Below are positions 1,565 to 32,729 of a DNA stretch of 55,177 nucleotides, one piece after another; the stretch's first letter is position 1; every line of letters starts with the position of its first letter. Both the position numbers and the translations under genes were made by a program. Source of the DNA: a virus; the IMG/VR virus record IMGVR_UViG_3300023175_000047, positions 1 through 55,177 of that record, one strand, 5' to 3'. The notes under the pieces were generated by a model that was not told the origin of the DNA, did not search any database, and worked only from the letters and a program-made list of their open reading frames with translations.

Positions 1565-2224
1565 ATGTCTGAATGTATTTATCATCGCCACCATATCATC
1601 CCTCGCCACGCTGGCGGAACTGACGATCCCTCAAACATTGTAGAACTAACCATTGAAGAACACGCCGAGGCTCATCGCTTGCTGTATGAGGAACACGGCC
1701 GTTGGCAAGACAAAGTTGCTTGGCGGGCTCTTTCTGGTCAAATTGATAAAGATGAGATTACAGCCGAAGCGAGACGAGAAGCCGGCAAAAAACGAAGAGG
1801 CAAATCAATACACTCGGAAGAATCAAGAGCAAAGATTCGTGCTGCTATGAAAGAAAGATATAAAGATAAAACAGAAAACCCAATGTATGGTAAAACTCAT
1901 TCAGAAGAAACCAAAGCAAAGATTAGTGCGTCAAATAAAGGTAGAGTTAAATCAGAAGAAGAAAGAGCAAATATAAGTGCTGCGATGACGGGAAAGAAAC
2001 TTTCAGAGGAAACTAAAGCAAAGCTTAGTGCTTTCAATAAAGGCAAGAAAAGGGGACCTCGTTCTGAAGAAACGAAAGCAAAGATTAGTGCATCTCGTAA
2101 GGGTAAAAAATTTTCAGACGAACATAAAGCAAATCTAAGTGCGGCGCATAAAGGCAAGAAAAGGGGACCGCGGTCAGAGGAAACTAAAGCAAAGATAAGT
2201 GCGGCCCGTAGGAGTCAACATTAG
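1565..2224 (+). CDS. HNH homing endonuclease with NUMOD3 repeats
   Basis: A free-standing DNA endonuclease of the HNH/NUMOD3 type. The N-terminal 45 residues carry the nuclease core: HRHHIIP (residues 7-13), GGTDD, N24 and HAEAH (33-37), giving the His-His/Asn/His metal site. Residues 80-219 are about seven copies of a 16-20-residue basic motif, S-E-E-T-K-A-K-I-S-A-x-x-K-G-K, the NUMOD3-type DNA-reading module. The start follows AAAAGGAG. The gene lies on the opposite strand to both neighbours and its stop shares four bases with the stop of the gp13 gene (2221-2224), the compact placing expected of an intron-less mobile gene that has landed at a gene boundary. Its 5' half is richer in G+C than the phage average. 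Likely role: cutting the corresponding site in competing phages and copying itself and nearby DNA. Confidence 0.9.
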   Translation: MSECIYHRHHIIPRHAGGTDDPSNIVELTIEEHAEAHRLLYEEHGRWQDKVAWRALSGQIDKDEITAEARREAGKKRRGKSIHSEESRAKIRAAMKERYKDKTENPMYGKTHSEETKAKISASNKGRVKSEEERANISAAMTGKKLSEETKAKLSAFNKGKKRGPRSEETKAKISASRKGKKFSDEHKANLSAAHKGKKRGPRSEETKAKISAARRSQH

Positions 2225-18500: not shown

Positions 18501-19786
18501 GACCTACACATCCAACAACTTCGAAAGCATATGGTTCTTACAAGGCAAGATTTATTGAAAAACAAGTTGCTGTTGATGATAAGTATCCAGTTTTCATACG
18601 TGCTAAAGATGAATTTGATAATTACAGTTTTTATAAAGCAACTATTGATATAGTAAAAGATCCTTTTATATATTTCTTTGATATTACAAGTGTAGAAGTA
18701 AATAATTTAGCAGGTAATTACTATACAAATTTAGTAAATTTAAATGTAAGATTGAGTTATGTATCTGGCTCAAGAATTATTAGAAAACAAATATTATTAG
18801 TTCACAGAACGAGCGGAGTAATACATAGTCTTCATAATGTAAATCCAAATAATTTCTTTATAGGCGAGGAAAATCTAACATTGAATCTTTCTGGAAAAGA
18901 AGGGCCATTTTATCTTAGATTAGAAATTGAAGATTCTGCCGGTAGAAGTTCGAGTAAAGAATTTAATTTAAATAGAAATACAGTAGCTCCATTAATAAAT
19001 CCAGCAGTAGTAAATCCTACAACTCCTAAAAATGGTTCTGGTCAAGTAACTAGTGATTATACCGATGTAAGAGTAACTGTTACAAATGAAGTTACAGCTT
19101 ATTCTCCCTTATGGAAAGCAAGAGCGACTTTATCTTCAACACCTATTACTGCAGCTTCACTAAAAACATCACCAATCGATTTAATATCGAATACAAGTAG
19201 ACCATTTTATACAAACATGGTGTGGTTTGAAGAAAAACCACAGCCTTCAATGCAGGTAATATATATTCATGTGATGGATGTATGTAATAATATCACGACG
19301 TATACTTTGAATGTTATGACTAACTCTACATCATTAGTTCCTCTTGGTGATTTAACATCAACCGCAAGAGTCTATTATAAAAGTTCTACGGATCCAATAG
19401 ACCATCAATTGATGACTAAACCCAAACCAAGATTACTTAATACAGGTGATCCTGGTTTAACAGATAATGGAAGAATATTACAGTTAAATAAGGGTAGCAT
19501 TATTTTAGCACCTTATTTTGGAGGAGTACTTGCTTCACAAGCAGCATATACTCCTGACCCGCCCGCTGTTGTAGGAACAATTGTAAATACACAAGGTATG
19601 AAATTCTATTTCAATCGGAGACCATCGAAAGTTCATGATTATATGGATACAGAATATATTGATTATGATATGTCAGACCCGAATGAAGATGTTGGTGATG
19701 TAGCAAGAATTAAAAATGATGATATTATTTTTGAAGATACTGTATCTGATGGATCTAAAACAATTACTTTGGGAGATATATCATAA
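15569..19786 (+). CDS. Modular adhesin with poly-glycine linkers and Ig-like domains (1405 aa)
   Basis: Small N-terminal globular domains are joined by pure glycine runs of 6 (residues 97-102), 10 (278-287), 14 (445-458) and 16 (644-659). The first domain and the one before the third run share a motif (VIVWLEGNLTVIKGFDS; YVLTEGLNGFIVEGFEL, then an Ala-rich helix), so these are repeated units. After the last run come Ig-like sandwiches (DIAGNIKSVGSIDVYPDTDGPEIT at about 725-750, then further D-x-x-x-(P/G) linkers) to about 1250. The C-terminal 150 residues are unlike the rest. Its stop overlaps the start of the next gene by one base, so the two are translationally coupled. Glycine-rich motifs are known in T-even tip adhesins (gp38 type), but this architecture is different. 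Likely a host-binding fibre part. Confidence 0.7.
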   Translation: MPTEVLPVVYGVSSWSVNYITGHPMYPKPWNVIVWLEGNLTVIKGFDSEAEAMAVTEITKDTSFFPTFTGTKVTRGSTEIPAEATSVKIYSVIHDMGGGGGGSSCGDGTPEPPSGQLGNNGVDGWTRTPGEFNNATIRVQAIHCTGGPGTTVGSDTLAAKEYWFDFKGNGTAGDINFYGYYIPKLHEVVDNGWIPDKTWVWVWTGNAAPTEGRSTGDSQILLHMSEIDNRWVQVYIDKTQNIFKVCGAELSSGETLTTGTNSALGFHHVTLSPMDGSGGGGGGGGGGSTCAGWDESQGVTDWVAGPIQDLEYYYLAGGPAENAGGGFFGQVGLQQDGNGFYHDEGDPGQALTVFKNSTLANIIGAVKHMWAKTPITHDPYYVLTEGLNGFIVEGFELSKLADAKAAAQAYFDSGWRVVTIGFCGPAGSDIISATDIGGTNSSGDGGGGGGGGGGGGGGAGSGPPYSYTYYGQSSSWTKIGCVSLPVQAVLGASINNGTTDPIPAGNYSSGDFEIILDSSALADFKKIYQSFNPSGAIPDPVWILDAAGYPTQTANFWNWWSEADGKEYYPPQTMGSTGGYALGARIKGAKPGLIQWYWDHAGTVFGLTLKGDIQVDVDIPYTGWNLDMCLLKFNALAGPYPPSGGGGGGGGGGGGGGGGVPTSVTVAPITPPTQPSFATSGGSIILKTGTAPSFSVTPPTYAEFETSGIPVSGASTDPLSYASLTLNILNRVFYYLRDIAGNIKSVGSIDVYPDTDGPEITNVNLTFNKPQPYTVDFNAPEVVTASATFTLRDVGVGIKEWAYDVGDGVLLYRTDQVTNAPNTPYNVSASKSFTIFPYVISSINVPSMVTQSDTNSTNGLVVLHDNIVIDWSDNLYGYEYALKFVLEYELEGFQWPHPSDPAGSEFPSICKLDITYNNGSTTDVIYSDDLQNIGPGPAQNPSALIKVDNVNPKELYVFRTPSDELTGTLDIILSLKAGPTHPTTSKAYGSYKARFIEKQVAVDDKYPVFIRAKDEFDNYSFYKATIDIVKDPFIYFFDITSVEVNNLAGNYYTNLVNLNVRLSYVSGSRIIRKQILLVHRTSGVIHSLHNVNPNNFFIGEENLTLNLSGKEGPFYLRLEIEDSAGRSSSKEFNLNRNTVAPLINPAVVNPTTPKNGSGQVTSDYTDVRVTVTNEVTAYSPLWKARATLSSTPITAASLKTSPIDLISNTSRPFYTNMVWFEEKPQPSMQVIYIHVMDVCNNITTYTLNVMTNSTSLVPLGDLTSTARVYYKSSTDPIDHQLMTKPKPRLLNTGDPGLTDNGRILQLNKGSIILAPYFGGVLASQAAYTPDPPAVVGTIVNTQGMKFYFNRRPSKVHDYMDTEYIDYDMSDPNEDVGDVARIKNDDIIFEDTVSDGSKTITLGDIS
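16901..16942 (+). repeat. In-frame glycine-codon microsatellite (14 codons)
   Basis: GGC/GGA alternation passing into GGT runs; encodes 14 consecutive Gly in the adhesin. Unit gain or loss would change linker length without breaking the frame. Confidence 0.9.
17498..17545 (+). repeat. In-frame (GGCGGA)n hexanucleotide microsatellite (16 Gly codons)
   Basis: Nearly perfect GGCGGA repeat, six units, flanked by GGC and GGT codons; encodes the longest Gly linker of the adhesin, between the small domains and the Ig-like part. Confidence 0.9.
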
Positions 19787-21297
19787 TGATTATCGGAAAT
19801 GTAACAATCAATTATAATGCTACACACATTACATCGAATCAAAATATAACTTTAGCTCCTGATGTGATCGAAAATGATCCAAAATATTATATTGGTTTTT
19901 ACGAGTACACCGTTCTTAAAAATGGATCTCCAGCATTTAGTGTAGGAAGAATAGCATTTTCAATGAACCCGATTTTATTTAATCAAAGTTCATTTATTAA
20001 TGTTTCTTCTTTAGGTTTATCACCTGGCGATACTGTTCAAGTTAATTTAAAATTTTGGGCAGTTCATAAAACTACTTCGGCTGAACTTTCATATAATTTC
20101 TCAACACAAACTGTAACTTATGATCCAAATATTCAAGCTACTAATTATATTAAAGTATCAAGAAGAAAAAGAAATATTGCTCAACTGCCTTCCGCTTCAG
20201 TTCCAGCCGGTCACCTAGATACAAATCATGGAACATACTCATCCACTAAAGATTCAGACCATGTTATAGCACCAGTTCCTGATATATTAAGAGATGACGG
20301 TTCTGTATTAAGAATTCATAAAGACCATGGACCATATTGGTCAAGAATTATCGGTGGTCTGGATATCAATTATACCTATAGATTATATTATACACATGGT
20401 TATACCTTAGGTGGATATAAAAACAGTTCAGCATTTCGAAGTGTATATAAAACTATTCATAATCAAGGTACAAATAGTGTAACATCATTTGTAGGTAATG
20501 TATTACATCAAGTAAATGCGTATGCTGGTGGTACTTGGGGAGACCGATACGCATATGTTTATAAAGCTAGAACAGATGGCTCTGATGGAGCATTTTATAG
20601 TTCAAATGGTATAACTAAATTTGATATGGCATCGGAAACAAGTGTGAGAGACCCTGCTGGGTTTAGAAGTCTATATACTCATTCAGGTGCTAGTGTAGTC
20701 AATAATTTTGGACTATTTGGTTATATTGCTTCTTCAGGTTCAGGAGGTCAAATTGAGGAACATGATTTAACAACAGATGTATTATCACCTCTTGGTTTAA
20801 CTGTTCCAACTAATGGTGTAAATTGCTCTACAGGAAAAGAAGCTGGTTATTTTTATTCAGGTAGTGGATTAAATAAACTTGTTTTTGCAACTAAAACTGT
20901 TGCTTCCATCGGTGTAGGCGTGGCGGCAGGTGCTGGTTCTAGTTCTTGTATACCTACTAAAAGATACTATCATTATCATGATGTTTCATCATCATCTCTT
21001 ATTAAATTAGATGAGTTAACAGAAACTATAACAGGTGCTGCAAGTAAAACATATGGGTTCTTTGAGGAAAGTTGGCAAATGGGTGAAGATAATGGGTTCT
21101 CAGTTGGAGTGTATGGAAATGGAGGGCAAAATCGTGAAATACATGTCATGAGTTTAGACACTAACACAATGTCACTTAGAGGATCAGCGCCTGGTAACGT
21201 TAGCGGACTGTCAACATCCGCAAATGTTTCTGCAGCTGGTTCTCTTTATGCTAGTCTATTTCCAAATTATTCGTTAACATATTTTGCATTAGTATAA
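19786..21297 (+). CDS. Propeller-like virion protein (503 aa)
   Basis: Residues 1-165 form a beta-rich attachment domain (FSVGRIAFSMNP, VNLKFWAV). From about 215 the sequence has blades of the kelch/propeller kind: Gly-Gly or Gly-Ser pairs followed by Tyr and a hydrophobic strand (YAGGTWGDRYAYVYKA, KEAGYFYSGSGLNKLVFAT, TKRYYHYHDVSSSSLIKLDELTE, KTYGFFEESWQMGED, GGQNREIHVMSLDTNTMS). That gives about six repeats of near 48 residues. The start overlaps the previous stop (TAATG), so it is coupled to the poly-Gly adhesin and may be its partner or tip. A receptor-binding propeller is the most likely role; the fold assignment is from pattern only. Confidence 0.6.
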   Translation: MIIGNVTINYNATHITSNQNITLAPDVIENDPKYYIGFYEYTVLKNGSPAFSVGRIAFSMNPILFNQSSFINVSSLGLSPGDTVQVNLKFWAVHKTTSAELSYNFSTQTVTYDPNIQATNYIKVSRRKRNIAQLPSASVPAGHLDTNHGTYSSTKDSDHVIAPVPDILRDDGSVLRIHKDHGPYWSRIIGGLDINYTYRLYYTHGYTLGGYKNSSAFRSVYKTIHNQGTNSVTSFVGNVLHQVNAYAGGTWGDRYAYVYKARTDGSDGAFYSSNGITKFDMASETSVRDPAGFRSLYTHSGASVVNNFGLFGYIASSGSGGQIEEHDLTTDVLSPLGLTVPTNGVNCSTGKEAGYFYSGSGLNKLVFATKTVASIGVGVAAGAGSSSCIPTKRYYHYHDVSSSSLIKLDELTETITGAASKTYGFFEESWQMGEDNGFSVGVYGNGGQNREIHVMSLDTNTMSLRGSAPGNVSGLSTSANVSAAGSLYASLFPNYSLTYFALV

Positions 21298-21307
21298 GGA
21301 TTATTTT

Positions 21308-21994
21308 ATGAAACATGAAGATATATTGAATTATTGCAGGCATAAAGTATTTACTCAAACAGATTATCAAAATAAATCATTTGTTATTAATACACAACTA
21401 ACGCCTCTTCGTAAATTAAAACAATGTATTATGGAAATTTCTTTACGAGAAGAAGGAGTCAGAGAAAAGGAAAGAAGTTTAAGAAAATTAGAATGGAAAA
21501 TGAAAGAACGTGAAGAAGAAATTGAAAATGAAAATTCTATTCCTAAAAAAGAAATGTTGAAAATTGAATTTGAAAAATTTGATTTTGAGCATATCAAATA
21601 TAAACATCAGTATGAAATGGCATTGGAAGATTTGAATAGTTTTGTACAGATTTTCAATGACCTTTTAGCTGAATATGATTTAGATTTAGAAAATCTTGAC
21701 CTAAATGATTTGGAAGAAGATCGAAAATATTGGCTAATTCGTATGGCTAAAAACTGTGCTGTCGATATGATCTGTACTGGTAGAATTACAACAGCCAATC
21801 TAAATGCCATTTTAGATATGAAAGAAGAAGATTACAAAGAAGTATTATTACTTGCCCATAAATATTCTAATTTTATTTCAAAGGAAATTAATAAATCTTC
21901 TGAAATAGCAAATAGTTCCATGAGAAATGAGTTGTTAAATAATGAAACAAATAGTAAAAAATTATTAGATTTTTATGAAGAGAATAATATATAA
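21308..21994 (+). CDS. Coiled-coil protein, unknown function
   Basis: The 228-residue product has a basic N-terminal helix, then a long charged coiled coil at about 36-110 (LREEGVREKERSLRKLEWKMKEREEEIE and on), and a helical, acidic C-terminal domain. Cys at 150 and 155 lie in MAKNCAVDMICTG. No signal or membrane segment. AAGGA precedes the ATG. It is the first of three genes that are not fibre-like and interrupt the adhesin run. I associate proteins of this pattern with T4-like marine phages but cannot assign a function. It may be an adaptor or a scaffold for the following enzyme. Confidence 0.65.
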   Translation: MKHEDILNYCRHKVFTQTDYQNKSFVINTQLTPLRKLKQCIMEISLREEGVREKERSLRKLEWKMKEREEEIENENSIPKKEMLKIEFEKFDFEHIKYKHQYEMALEDLNSFVQIFNDLLAEYDLDLENLDLNDLEEDRKYWLIRMAKNCAVDMICTGRITTANLNAILDMKEEDYKEVLLLAHKYSNFISKEINKSSEIANSSMRNELLNNETNSKKLLDFYEENNI

Positions 21995-22009: not shown

Positions 22010-23695
22010 ATGTTTTCCTTTCCCTTGAATCCAAAACTTTCAGAACAGGAGTTTTCAGAAGTAGTAATTCCTTTCTTAGTAGAACATAAAAATTTAATAA
22101 AAGATTTTTATTTTACATCAAGAATTCCCCCATTTGCGAATGATGCAATGGGAGATTATTTTTTGAATGCTTCAAATTTAGAAGGTTTGTTTAATAATGC
22201 ATTATATGTGCAAGAGAAGACTGGTGTACCAGCATCTGCTACATTTAATAATATACATATCAATCCAAGATTAGAGAATTTAAATAAATTCATCAAAAAT
22301 TTTGAGCCATTTTATGAAGCAGGTGTGCGAATAGCAACCATACCATTTACTTCTTGGGTGATGACAGGTCAGTTGCAATATGAATTTCCTGAGTTAAAAA
22401 TCAAAAATACAATTCTACAATCGATACGCAATTCTCAAGAAGTTTGGCAATTATGTGAAGCTGGTTTTGATTATATCAATCTTGAAAGAACCTTGATGAG
22501 AAATCAAGATGAGTTATTAAGAATTATCAAAGCTAGAAACAAATATTTTAGTGACACAGGAAAATATGTAGAACTTTCTTTATTGGCCAATGAAAATTGT
22601 TTGGGTTGGTGTCCAATTATGGATGAACATTATAATTATAACTCTCAACGTATATTAGAAGATCCACAATTTTTTTATAGTAGCTTGTCGAATGTATCTT
22701 GTTCAAAATGGGATTATGAAATATCTGGTGTCGAACTCAAAAGCGCAAACATACCACCATGGAAAGAAGATTGGGATGAGTTCTTAGAATTTGGCATTGA
22801 TGTTTTTAAACTTCATGGACGTGAAAATAAAGATAAAATGTATCACAGCATGAGCATAATTGAAAATTATGCAAATGATAAAGATATTCTATACAATGAC
22901 TTTGAAAGTTATAGTGAAGATATAAAGAATGTTTTGATCTCCAAATGGAGACAAAAAATAAAAACTTGTAAGAATGAATGTTGGGATTGTGGTTATTGCG
23001 ATGGTATTGGTAAATATGAATCTGAACATAAATCTTATATCAAAAAAATAAATGACAAAATACACAAATCAAATTTATATAATTCAAAATGCAGTGAAAA
23101 AACATTTTCTGTTCCAAGCTTCACATCAGATAAAATAATATGTCTTCTAAATAATTTAGTAGAAGATAGTGACATACATTTAGAAATAGGAACATTATTG
23201 GGAGGCACATTCCGAGCATCATTGGAAAATAATAATGCTGTAGGTATCGCTATTGATAATTGGAAAATTAATGAATTAAAACCCATACAACCTCACAATC
23301 CTATTATATTTTCTGACCGAATGAAGGCAGAATGTGAGATGAACTTAAGTGATTTATCGAATCAATATCATTTATTAGAATTAGATATAAAAGAAATTAC
23401 GAGTAAACATATAACAGACTGTATAGATAATCAAAAGATAACAAGTCTGTTTTATGATGGACCAATGGAATTTAAATATGTAAAGCACATTTTCAGAAAA
23501 CTGCATGATGTGCTATCAGATAAATTACTTTTTATTTTAGATGATGCTAAAAATGAAAAAATGATAAAAGAATTTGAATATTATATTAATATGAATTGGT
23601 ATGTAAATTTCACAAAGCTGATAGTTGGTACAGAAATTGAAGACGCAGAGAGTTGGTGGAATGGAGTTGGAATATATTATTTGACAAAGAGGTAG
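22010..23695 (+). CDS. U32-like Fe-S TIM-barrel fused to a class I methyltransferase
   Basis: Two domains in one 561-residue chain. Residues 60-350 resemble the U32 family (UbiU/UbiV, RlhA, TrhP): GVRIATIPFT, ELKIKNTILQSIRNSQEVWQ, AGFDYINLERTL, then LLANENCLGWCP with C197 and C201, C231 in NVSCSKWDY, a KLHGREN motif (267-273) like the KIEGR of the family, and CKNECWDCGYC (320-330). These Cys can bind a 4Fe-4S cluster. Residues 380-561 are a Rossmann methyltransferase: LEIGTLLGGTF (391-401) for S-adenosylmethionine, AIDNW (414-418), and LFYDGPMEFKY followed by FILDDAKN (508-515), like Methyltransf_24. U32 enzymes that are understood hydroxylate RNA or ubiquinone precursors, so a hydroxylate-then-methylate enzyme is plausible; the substrate is unknown. 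GGAG lies about ten bases before the ATG. Confidence 0.65.
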   Translation: MFSFPLNPKLSEQEFSEVVIPFLVEHKNLIKDFYFTSRIPPFANDAMGDYFLNASNLEGLFNNALYVQEKTGVPASATFNNIHINPRLENLNKFIKNFEPFYEAGVRIATIPFTSWVMTGQLQYEFPELKIKNTILQSIRNSQEVWQLCEAGFDYINLERTLMRNQDELLRIIKARNKYFSDTGKYVELSLLANENCLGWCPIMDEHYNYNSQRILEDPQFFYSSLSNVSCSKWDYEISGVELKSANIPPWKEDWDEFLEFGIDVFKLHGRENKDKMYHSMSIIENYANDKDILYNDFESYSEDIKNVLISKWRQKIKTCKNECWDCGYCDGIGKYESEHKSYIKKINDKIHKSNLYNSKCSEKTFSVPSFTSDKIICLLNNLVEDSDIHLEIGTLLGGTFRASLENNNAVGIAIDNWKINELKPIQPHNPIIFSDRMKAECEMNLSDLSNQYHLLELDIKEITSKHITDCIDNQKITSLFYDGPMEFKYVKHIFRKLHDVLSDKLLFILDDAKNEKMIKEFEYYINMNWYVNFTKLIVGTEIEDAESWWNGVGIYYLTKR

Positions 23696-23696
23696 A

Positions 23697-24671
23697 ATGA
23701 TTTATATTTTGTTTTTGTTTTTTATATTTTTGAATACAGCAATTATTCGTCAAAATAATATGTTTTTAGGATTTTATGATTTTTTGAAAAAGAATATAAA
23801 ATCCAATAAGTTATTAGTGTTTTTGATTTCCTTGATTTCTGGAGTGCTACCGGTATCTGGAAGAGTAAGTGTGTCTGCTTCAATGCTTGACACATTACAT
23901 CTAAAGAATAAACAGAAGCTTGGAGTTATTGATTATCTATCAACACATCATTACTATCTGTGGAGCCCATTAGAAAAAACTATTCTGATTCCTATGGCGG
24001 TTTTAGGTTTATCATACTTTCAAATAATCGAGATACTGGCACCAGCAATCATATTATACATAGGATTTTTATTATATTATTTTTTATATCAATTGAAACC
24101 GGCAGATGTAGAATTTAAAGTAGAAACTACAGAACAAGAATTTTCATTACTAACTATACTATTTTTCATTGCTCCAATTGTAGCAATGATAGCATTTCCT
24201 GATTTAGAACTCTGGATACCCTTTGCGATAGCATCACCATATTTTTTATATAAACATTATATCGCAAATGGAACTTTAAAGAATATAGAAATCAATTGGC
24301 AATTATTGGTAATCATCGGTGGAATTATAATACTTGGTCAATATGCTGCTGAATATTTTGAGGAAGCTAAAAGTTACATCAGCACAAATGAATTCTCATT
24401 ACCATTAGCAGTCGCCCTTGGATTTTTTGCTAGTTTTGCTATGGGTTCATCTGGTAAATTTGTAGCGTTGTCTACTTTTCTAACAATGATTTATGGAGTA
24501 CAATATTTTCCATTGTTTTTCTTGACAGAGTATGCTGCTTATCTGATTTCACCATCACATAAATGTTTGGCGATCGGGAAGCAATATTTTGATACACCAT
24601 TTAAAATGTATCTGAAACCGATAGGTCAATTAGCAATCATAATGTTTATCCTGGGTATAATATTAAGCTAA
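23697..24671 (+). CDS. Polytopic membrane protein resembling DUF401/IT-superfamily permeases
   Basis: About 9-10 hydrophobic segments in 324 residues (2-14, 38-54, 93-110, 112-133, 150-168, 172-186, 202-215, 234-250, 255-281, 308-323). Two halves share a motif order: GVLPVSG (49-55) then THHYYLWSPLEKTILIP (83-99) in the first, and MGSSGKF (249-255) then TEYAAYLISPSHKCLAIG (277-294) in the second. Such a double repeat with G-x-x-x-S-G hairpins and S-P turns is the pattern of ion-transporter-like permeases (GntP, CitMHS, DUF401). The start (ATG at 23697) comes one base after the stop of the enzyme gene, with GAGG inside that gene, so the two are made together. It probably acts in the host inner membrane. 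Unexpected among fibre genes. The family call is tentative; the membrane topology is clear. Confidence 0.65.
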   Translation: MIYILFLFFIFLNTAIIRQNNMFLGFYDFLKKNIKSNKLLVFLISLISGVLPVSGRVSVSASMLDTLHLKNKQKLGVIDYLSTHHYYLWSPLEKTILIPMAVLGLSYFQIIEILAPAIILYIGFLLYYFLYQLKPADVEFKVETTEQEFSLLTILFFIAPIVAMIAFPDLELWIPFAIASPYFLYKHYIANGTLKNIEINWQLLVIIGGIIILGQYAAEYFEEAKSYISTNEFSLPLAVALGFFASFAMGSSGKFVALSTFLTMIYGVQYFPLFFLTEYAAYLISPSHKCLAIGKQYFDTPFKMYLKPIGQLAIIMFILGIILS

Positions 24672-30959: not shown

Positions 30960-32729
30960 ATGGCAGCACCAGTTCTTAAGAAAATTCACTTTGCTTATCC
31001 GGGTGTATCAGGTATTTCAAAAAACCTAGGGATCATGGGCGATCCTCTTTATTATATTAATGTAGACCCTGCTAGTGATGCTTATTTCTACTTAGAGTAT
31101 GATCAAGCTCTTGATGACCATACTCTACCAAACTTGAGTAGAATAGAAGACCGAGTAGTCAATGGCGGATCTACAGTACTTGCTCTGCTTGATGTTACAG
31201 AAATCAATGGTAGCTTTCCTGGAGGTCTGAGTGCTTATTTGACAATTAGTTCTTCTCCCTGGGCAACTCAAGATGGTACATATAGTGTGATCGGACAAAC
31301 AAAGGTTACTACTGATAAACTTCATTGGGAAACTGCTAATGCAATTGATCCTGCTAACCTTGCTGATTCTACTCTTTCACATAACTGTCTTTACTTTCAA
31401 GTTCCGGCCGGACAATTAAAAGATGGTCATATATATAATATTCTTAGATATCGAGATCTAATCGACAATAAGGCTCTTGAAGCAGAGGGTGTTGGTAGGA
31501 TTCCTGGGCTTATGTGGGAGACTAATCTAGCTATTGACGCCACCGCACCTACTATTGTATCAGCAACACCTGCGCCTGCTGCTACAAATGTGCCTGTGAA
31601 TTCACAAATTATAATTGATTTTAGTGAAGAAGTTACAATACCAGCAAGCGTGACTTACAGTGTTCCAAATGATCCTGATAATTGGATTGCTGACCCTGCG
31701 GTTGTTACATATACAGCAAGCCCATCAAGAGTTACGATCACTCCGATCAATCCTTTTGGACCATTTACGACAGTTAATGTTCAGGTGCCTCTTGGATATG
31801 TTATTACAGACAATTCATCAAACCTATTAAATCCAATAGGTTGGTTTTTTACGACTGGACCACCACCGCCACCACCGCCACCACCGCCACCACCACCAGA
31901 TACTCGAGTGCCGATTGAAGCATATGCGATTGGCTTTACTAAAGATCCAGATAATTTCAAATCAATACCTTTGACAAAAAGTGGTACCATTACTCAAGAA
32001 TTTAAAATACCTGCTGTAGATATTGATGGTCCAAAAATCATGTATTTGAGATTACGAGATCAAGATGGTCTGATTTCAACAAATTATCGTATCGCTTTGA
32101 GAGTTTTAGATTTTGAATTAGAAACATTTGAAGTAGATACTCATGGTTATTGTGGAGGAACAACAAATCAAATTGATGTTTTATTCGATACAGATACAGA
32201 TCCTACTACAATGGAATATGGATTCCTTATAGATGATTCTGGTGAACCAACTGTTTGGAACCCTATAACTCCTTTGACTTTTGACAGCGTTGGTAAATAC
32301 AAATTCAATTTCAATTTAGATGTTTCAATCATTGGTAGTGGTCAACATGACTTATATGTTTGGTTGAGAACATTAGAAGGTGAAAAGAAATTCTGTAAAA
32401 CTGATTTTGTGAGTGAACCAATTCCTGCTGATCCATATGGTATACTCACAATTAAAAAATCAATGATTGACGGTGACAAGAAAAAAGTTTGGGTAGAAGC
32501 AAATATCTTTGACGCTGGTGTTGGAGTTTCAGCAATTAGTTTTGTTGAATCAATAAATCCAGCAAGTTTTGAAAGTATAAATATAATACAAAATAAACGA
32601 ATTACAAAATTATTTGAGTATGATGCTTCCGCAAACACAACAAATACGTTCAATTTAATTATCGAAGATGCTGTGGGTAGAACTTCAGCTTTAATTACAA
32701 CCTCTATTGACTTGAGCGGTGTTTACTGA
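30960..32729 (+). CDS. Ig-like (Big_5-type) virion protein with a 13-proline linker
   Basis: Residues 1-190 form an N-terminal beta domain. Residues 193-299 look like a bacterial Ig-like 'Big_5' fold: APTIVSATPAPAATNVPVN, IIIDFSEEV, and VPLGYVITDNSSNLLNP before FFTTG. Then come 13 consecutive Pro (301-313). The rest holds two or three Ig-like domains of the type in the preceding gene (IMYLRLRDQDGLISTNYRIAL, HDLYVWLRTLEGEKKF, FNLIIEDAVGRTSALIT). So this gene carries on the Ig array of its neighbour and may assemble with it. AAGGAA lies in front of the ATG. Its 3' end overlaps the next gene by 11 bases. Confidence 0.75.
   Translation: MAAPVLKKIHFAYPGVSGISKNLGIMGDPLYYINVDPASDAYFYLEYDQALDDHTLPNLSRIEDRVVNGGSTVLALLDVTEINGSFPGGLSAYLTISSSPWATQDGTYSVIGQTKVTTDKLHWETANAIDPANLADSTLSHNCLYFQVPAGQLKDGHIYNILRYRDLIDNKALEAEGVGRIPGLMWETNLAIDATAPTIVSATPAPAATNVPVNSQIIIDFSEEVTIPASVTYSVPNDPDNWIADPAVVTYTASPSRVTITPINPFGPFTTVNVQVPLGYVITDNSSNLLNPIGWFFTTGPPPPPPPPPPPPPDTRVPIEAYAIGFTKDPDNFKSIPLTKSGTITQEFKIPAVDIDGPKIMYLRLRDQDGLISTNYRIALRVLDFELETFEVDTHGYCGGTTNQIDVLFDTDTDPTTMEYGFLIDDSGEPTVWNPITPLTFDSVGKYKFNFNLDVSIIGSGQHDLYVWLRTLEGEKKFCKTDFVSEPIPADPYGILTIKKSMIDGDKKKVWVEANIFDAGVGVSAISFVESINPASFESINIIQNKRITKLFEYDASANTTNTFNLIIEDAVGRTSALITTSIDLSGVY
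31860..31898 (+). repeat. In-frame (CCACCACCG)n poly-proline microsatellite (13 codons)
   Basis: Three perfect 9-base units with flanking CCA codons, encoding Pro301-313. Read on the complement it is a glycine-codon run like those at 16901 and 17498. Confidence 0.9.

What the first reader, a model, noticed from the sequence alone, without database searches (positions are those of the whole stretch)
22010..23695. Phage-encoded U32-like hydroxylase fused to a methyltransferase
One chain joins a U32-like barrel (C197, C201, C231, C320-C330; KLHGR motif) to a class I methyltransferase (LEIGTLLGGTF, FILDD). Characterised U32 enzymes use prephenate to hydroxylate without oxygen (TrhP on tRNA U34, RlhA on 23S rRNA, UbiU/UbiV). 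In Bacillus subtilis the U32 genes trhP1/trhP2 lie beside the O-methyltransferase gene trmR, giving 5-methoxyuridine at tRNA U34. A fused pair in a phage would be a compact hydroxylate-then-methylate tool, for tRNA, DNA, or a cell-surface or cofactor target. Lying amid fibre genes, it could also modify a virion or host surface glycan.
Basis: partly seen in the sequence, partly recalled or inferred. Interest (0 to 1): 0.85.

Follow-up and report, generated by a model that had tools for sequence, protein, structure and literature searches.

The report
Phage U32-like oxidase–methyltransferase in fibre operon
A gene of ocean phages, listed everywhere as 'hypothetical', fuses a distant relative of bacterial oxygen-free hydroxylases to an O-methyltransferase; it sits in tail-fibre operons and its relatives sit beside other protein-altering enzymes, so it probably decorates the proteins the phage uses to grip its host, which is not yet tested.

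Summary
The 561-aa ORF joins a U32-like TIM barrel (residues 1-344) to a class I O-methyltransferase (about 370-561). The barrel misses Pfam's cut-off but links to classical U32 proteins by profiles through bridging proteins that pass it; the U32 structure 5d88 is its best PDB match by TM-score. The methyltransferase is closest in sequence to TrmR and keeps COMT-type metal ligands. The gene is conserved (phrog_1458, T4-GC354): 123 cyanophage records, all unannotated, one fused clade, one split form. It has seven invariant cysteines (CX3C, C, CX3CX2CX2C) instead of the described four-cysteine U32 motifs, so a single-chain two-cluster enzyme is possible. Context points away from tRNA: the gene follows a fibre and a coiled-coil gene throughout the fused family; barrel-only phage relatives lie within about 0.6 kb of VirX1-type halogenases and near 2OG oxygenases; bacterial relatives sit in type I secretion operons. 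In Syn9 the same genomic slot holds a halogenase/2OG cluster. Best reading: an O2-independent hydroxylase plus O-methyltransferase that modifies a tail-fibre protein, perhaps on an aromatic side chain. Domain identity and context are shown; chemistry, clusters and substrate are inferred.

The parts
22010..23695 (+). U32-like barrel fused to class I O-methyltransferase (T4-GC354 / phrog_1458 family)
   Evidence: 561-aa ORF; phrog_1458 E 1.5e-150; 123 phage records; AF2 pLDDT 86.8, pTM 0.76
22010..23041 (+). N-terminal U32-like TIM-barrel domain (residues 1-344)
   Evidence: AF2 pTM 0.87; 5d88 U32 Mk0906 TMq 0.51 / TMt 0.69; profile links
22598..22612 (+). CX3C (C197, C201), proposed first Fe-S site together with C231
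   Evidence: invariant in alignments A1, A2, A7
22700..22702 (+). C231, proposed third ligand of the first site
   Evidence: invariant in A1, A2, A7
22808..22822 (+). KLHGR motif (267-271), counterpart of the U32 KIEGR motif
   Evidence: invariant K267, G270, R271; canonical K287, E289-G290-R291
22967..22999 (+). CX3CX2CX2C (C320, C324, C327, C330), proposed second Fe-S site
   Evidence: invariant in A1 and A2; C320 and C324 invariant and C327 and C330 at least 90% in A7; same pattern in bridging U32 proteins
23093..23692 (+). C-terminal O-methyltransferase domain (aligned from residue 362; core about 370-561) with proposed metal ligands D483, D511, D512
   Evidence: Methyltransf_24 in 14 of 18 homologues, best 4e-10; TrmR 5zw3 E 1.9e-4; Foldseek to TrmR and COMT
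19786..21297 (+). fibre-like protein, T4-GC351 type, candidate substrate
   Evidence: phrog_1417 E 2.6e-22; same cluster in 27 loci of the fused family
21308..21994 (+). small coiled-coil-like protein (T4-GC353 / phrog_1409), fibre-module partner
   Evidence: phrog_1409 E 1.5e-40; neighbour in 28 loci of the fused family
23697..24671 (+). DUF401-like membrane protein, 1 nt downstream; link to the module uncertain
   Evidence: phrog_14035 E 4.7e-71, TIGR00529 E 4e-8; relatives beside only a few fused loci

Best explanation
A bifunctional protein-modification enzyme of the tail-fibre module. The barrel is a divergent U32 oxidase with seven conserved cysteines, probably holding two Fe-S clusters in one chain, that adds an oxygen to a side chain of a fibre protein (GC351-type and/or the large fibres), probably without O2 and perhaps from prephenate. 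The fused Mg-dependent, TrmR/COMT-like domain then methylates the new hydroxyl. An aromatic residue, for example tyrosine to a methoxy-tyrosine, fits both chemistries best. Shown here: the two domains, their conservation, the single fused clade and the neighbourhoods. Inferred: Fe-S clusters, hydroxylation, prephenate use, fibre substrate and target residue.
For: Domain identity. Follows a fibre and a coiled-coil gene throughout the fused family. Overlaps by 4 nt a 2OG-oxygenase-like gene mis-named denV in Syn33, P-SSM4 and Syn19. VirX1-type halogenase 0-613 nt away in 28 barrel-only and 4 fused clusters; 2OG oxygenase in the flank of 11 of 17 fused clusters. The same slot between conserved flanks (fibre GC346, GC214) holds halogenases plus 2OG oxygenases in Syn9. 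Closest cellular relatives lie in type I secretion operons, beside DUF6445 plus SPASM radical SAM, or beside Trp-halogenase-like and SecA genes. Split form: adjacent barrel and methyltransferase genes. [quoted passage not shown]
Against: No direct evidence for hydroxylation, Fe-S binding or a fibre substrate. The described U32 cysteine motifs and E162 are not conserved. The fibre region is a variable region, so neighbours may share location rather than function. In the window itself no 2OG oxygenase was found and no halogenase was recognised. TrmR, the closest solved methyltransferase, acts on tRNA.
Confidence: 0.45

Rival explanations
1. tRNA or rRNA modification: the fusion is a phage TrhP-TrmR equivalent that makes 5-hydroxy then 5-methoxy pyrimidine, tuning decoding during infection.
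For: Barrel is U32-like and the methyltransferase's closest solved relative is TrmR. TrhO-TrmR fusions exist in Phytophthora and Phaeodactylum (PMC6599085).
Against: The gene lies in the fibre module. Closest cellular relatives lie in secretion operons. No tRNA gene in the window. E162 and C177 of TrhP, essential for tRNA hydroxylation (PMC6599085), are not conserved in place.
Confidence: 0.17
2. Modification of a small molecule, quinone or surface glycan: the barrel hydroxylates a cofactor or sugar-linked aromatic, as UbiU/UbiV do for ubiquinone, and the methyltransferase caps it.
For: UbiU/UbiV are U32 enzymes acting on a ring (PMC6747719); COMT-like enzymes act on small catechols. One relative lies near a carbamoyltransferase (L045).
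Against: No glycosyltransferase or quinone genes were seen in the conserved neighbourhood; the constant partners are fibre and coiled-coil genes.
Confidence: 0.15
3. Acts on the fibre but not by hydroxylation: the divergent seven-cysteine barrel performs another Fe-S-dependent reaction, for example a radical or peptide-bond reaction, and the methyltransferase methylates an existing group.
For: The canonical U32 catalytic signature is missing; one relative lies beside DUF6445 and SPASM radical-SAM genes.
Against: The characterised U32 oxidases have hydroxylase roles, and the fused domain is of the O-methyltransferase kind with metal ligands kept.
Confidence: 0.15

Closest known systems
U32 oxidases TrhP (tRNA U34), RlhA (23S rRNA), UbiU/UbiV (ubiquinone)
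   Same: TIM barrel, first Fe-S cysteine (C197 at the place of TrhP C170), R160 with R142, K..GR motif; profile link through bridging proteins
   Different: CX3C...C...CX3CX2CX2C instead of CX6CX15CX3/4C, CX6CX16CX38C or CXnCX12CX3C; E162 not kept; fused to a methyltransferase; fibre, not RNA or quinone, context
TrmR (YrrM), tRNA 5-hydroxyuridine O-methyltransferase, and COMT-like enzymes
   Same: class I fold; closest solved sequence match (E 1.9e-4); three metal-ligand positions conserved (D, D, D/N)
   Different: only 15-17% identical in the Foldseek match; fused to a barrel; different genomic setting
trhP1-trhP2-trmR genes of Bacillus subtilis and TrhO-TrmR fusions of Phytophthora/Phaeodactylum
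   Same: hydroxylase plus O-methyltransferase working in series; fused in the oomycete and diatom case
   Different: this fusion uses a single seven-cysteine U32-like barrel, is viral, and sits in a fibre operon
VirX1-type flavin halogenases of cyanophages (Syn10, Syn9)
   Same: same fibre-module slot in Syn9, near neighbours of barrel-only relatives, natural substrate not established
   Different: unrelated fold and O2-dependent halogenation

Membership tests
U32 superfamily (PF01136) | Pfam gathering score 22.4 bits | tested here: not met
   13.1 bits whole protein, 14.9 bits domain alone
U32 superfamily (PF01136) | homology by profile comparison | tested here: met
   direct 45% / E 2e-4; through bridging proteins that pass Pfam's cut-off: 98.4% / 1e-14 and 98.1% / 1e-13
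U32 superfamily (PF01136) | U32 barrel fold | tested here: met
   5d88 best TM-score among the hits shown, TMq 0.51, TMt 0.69, rmsd 4.5; MTHFR has a better E-value but TMq 0.45, rmsd 7.7
Characterised U32 oxidases | four-cysteine motif CX6CX15CX3/4C (or UbiU/UbiV variants) | tested here: not met
   CX3C, C, CX3CX2CX2C instead (motifs from PMC6747719)
Characterised U32 oxidases | essential Glu equivalent to TrhP E162 | tested here: not met
   aligns with S190, not conserved
Characterised U32 oxidases | 4Fe-4S cluster and prephenate dependence | not testable with these tools
   needs purified protein
Mg-dependent class I O-methyltransferase (COMT/TrmR) | fold and profile similarity | tested here: met
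   TrmR among the top Foldseek hits; hmmsearch E 1.9e-4; Methyltransf_24 to 4e-10 in homologues
Mg-dependent class I O-methyltransferase (COMT/TrmR) | three acidic/Asn metal ligands | tested here: met
   D483, D511, D512 invariant, aligned with TrmR Asp, Asp, Asn positions; that these bind metal in TrmR/COMT is from general knowledge
Radical SAM | CX3CX2C motif | tested here: not met
   C197-X3-C201 lacks the third cysteine at +3
TrhP-TrmR tRNA pathway | tRNA substrate | not testable with these tools
   context argues against it
T4-GC354 / phrog_1458 | full-length match | tested here: met
   E 1.5e-150 over residues 47-558; labelled GC354 in Syn33, P-SSM4, P-HM2, Syn19, S-ShM2

The most novel reading that the evidence does not exclude
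Marine phages oxidatively decorate their host-binding fibres with interchangeable enzymes (U32-methyltransferase, VirX1-type halogenase, 2OG oxygenases), so that some fibres carry O2-independently hydroxylated and O-methylated aromatic residues; this would be the first U32 enzyme acting on a protein and would give VirX1 its natural substrate.
Probability: 0.25. Interest if true: 0.88.

Novelty: new variant of a known kind. Interest (0 to 1): 0.72.

Why it matters
The characterised U32 oxidases act on RNA or quinones, and their mechanism is open. A single-chain, seven-cysteine form fused to its methyltransferase would be a simple system in which to study it. If the substrate is the fibre, a widespread cyanophage gene of unknown function becomes a host-recognition factor, and the puzzle of why cyanophages carry halogenases and arrays of 2OG oxygenases gains a testable answer.

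Tried and rejected
Single-sequence searches of PDB, Pfam and NCBIfam gave nothing significant for the barrel, so profiles and folds were used. Foldseek of the barrel alone ranks MTHFR first by E-value; rejected as kin because its TM-score and rmsd are worse and the sequence profiles point to U32. Radical SAM rejected by motif. A wider survey of bacterial genomes showed the gene is rare (1/298 Campylobacterota, 2/228 Sulfurimonadaceae, 3/258 in the Desulfocapsa order), so operon statistics in bacteria rest on few loci. The Hydrogenimonas relative lies beside CRISPR type III genes, judged coincidental. Cysteine distances could not be read, since models are not returned as coordinates. Literature searches for a cyanophage U32 gene or a U32 gene with RTX secretion found no relevant paper.

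Full report
What is there. The ORF 22010-23695 encodes 561 aa. Gaps to its neighbours are 10 (fibre to coiled-coil gene), 15 and 1 nt on the same strand, as in an operon. The window is a 55-kb virus record with T4-like structural genes; its neck protein is only about 30% identical to known phages, cyanophages among the best, so the virus is a distant T4-like phage of unknown host.

Conservation. The full chain is phrog_1458 (E 1.5e-150). In GenBank it occurs in 123 cyanophage records, below 60% identity to the window and 'hypothetical' wherever annotated; the T4-like cluster label is GC354. Eighteen full-length homologues keep seven cysteines, K267-G270-R271, the SAM motif and D483/D511/D512. 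A tree places all fused proteins in one clade (support 94/99) whose neighbours are bacterial barrel-only proteins; a second, longer barrel-only clade is mostly viral. L015 carries the two domains as adjacent, slightly overlapping genes.

Barrel. Pfam U32 is sub-threshold (14.9 bits against 22.4). A search with the family profile hit a protein of genome G009 that itself passes Pfam's U32 cut-off. Using three such bridging proteins, profile comparison gives 98.4% (E 1e-14) to this family and 98.1% (E 1e-13) to classical U32 proteins including E. coli TrhP, RlhA, UbiU and UbiV; the direct comparison is weak (E 2e-4). The AF2 model is confident, and the solved U32 domain 5d88 has the best TM-score of the hits shown. 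The bridging proteins share the CX3C, C, CX3CX2CX2C layout. None of the U32 motifs described in PMC6747719 has it. [quoted passage not shown] seven cysteines in one chain could be the single-chain solution, with a three-cysteine cluster that leaves one iron free. That is inference.

Methyltransferase. Methyltransf_24 matches 14 of 18 homologues. The best solved sequence match is TrmR, and Foldseek finds TrmR and COMTs among many class I enzymes. The metal-ligand positions of COMT-like enzymes align with D483, D511 and D512. Such enzymes methylate a hydroxyl next to another oxygen (general knowledge), which is what a hydroxylase acting on a phenol or pyrimidinone would leave.

Neighbourhood. 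In the fused family a GC351-type fibre gene and a GC353-type coiled-coil gene accompany all 17 uncultured and all 8 cultured-phage loci clustered (cluster totals 27 and 28 loci, not dereplicated). In Syn33, P-SSM4 and Syn19 the next gene, labelled denV, has a 2OG-oxygenase pattern (H-x-D, H, R), is similar to Syn9 gp51, and overlaps GC354 by 4 nt; its Pfam support is weak (E 0.0015 in Syn33, none in the other two). After dereplication at 90% identity, 11 of 17 fused clusters have a 2OG oxygenase in the fetched flank and 4 have a VirX1-type halogenase within 613 nt; of the 44 mostly viral barrel-only rows 28 have the halogenase, always within 613 nt. The halogenase of L023 matches VirX1 (6qgm) at 1e-142. 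In Syn9 the same slot, between the fibre GC346 (81% identical to P-SSM4) and GC214, holds two halogenases and a run of 2OG/JmjC/DUF6445-type genes, four of them over Pfam's cut-off. In bacteria, Desulfocapsa has an RTX protein, the barrel gene and an ABC exporter with a C39 domain; Campylobacteraceae and Sulfurimonas have the barrel gene, an outer-membrane channel, exporter and HlyD. Others lie beside DUF6445 plus a SPASM radical SAM, or beside a Trp-halogenase-like gene and a SecA. The common theme is a large secreted or fibrous protein plus oxidative tailoring enzymes.

Interpretation. The theme favours a protein substrate over tRNA. Which residue is modified is unknown; aromatic residues fit the chemistry of both domains and the neighbouring halogenase. 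What is missing is any biochemical evidence and, in silico, the cysteine geometry. A control for the clustering of tailoring genes in variable fibre regions was not run. The halogenase spacing (0-613 nt whenever one is present) is the strongest sign that the linkage is not just regional, though the flanks searched were mostly 4-6 kb, which limits that statement.

Noticed in passing
L027:11689-12198, L026:13695-14195, L029:9692-10189 (P-SSM4, Syn33, Syn19): Genes annotated 'denV, DNA endonuclease V' look like 2OG-Fe(II) oxygenases (H-x-D...H...R, similar to Syn9 gp51) and have no DenV Pfam match; probable misannotation of T4-GC100.
   Followed up: partly
L030:8001-9652 (P-SSM3): The GC354 homologue is broken by a frame change in the methyltransferase half and is not annotated as a gene; the barrel half is intact.
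   Followed up: no
L042 (Hydrogenimonas): A barrel-only relative lies directly after type III CRISPR genes (Cas10/Csm).
   Followed up: no
L043 (Arcobacter): A long barrel-only relative precedes a circularly permuted ATP-grasp gene and what look like an alpha-E protein and two succinylglutamate desuccinylase-like genes, resembling a peptide-tailoring cluster.
   Followed up: partly
L045 (Pelagibacterales MAG contig): Small proteins with CARYCSHYCARYC and GYGYGF repeats lie near a barrel-only relative, a 2OG oxygenase, a carbamoyltransferase and DUF6445: possible modified structural peptides.
   Followed up: no
L034, L035: Contigs binned as Euryarchaeota and Dehalococcoidia carry the fused-family phage operon (L034 ends within the barrel half) and are probably phage contigs placed in those MAGs.
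   Followed up: no
window 1565-2224: ORF resembling an HNH-type homing endonuclease with tandem NUMOD-like repeats, opposite in strand to the neighbouring neck-protein gene.
   Followed up: no
window 30960-32729: Fibre-like ORF with a run of about 13 prolines joining two parts.
   Followed up: no
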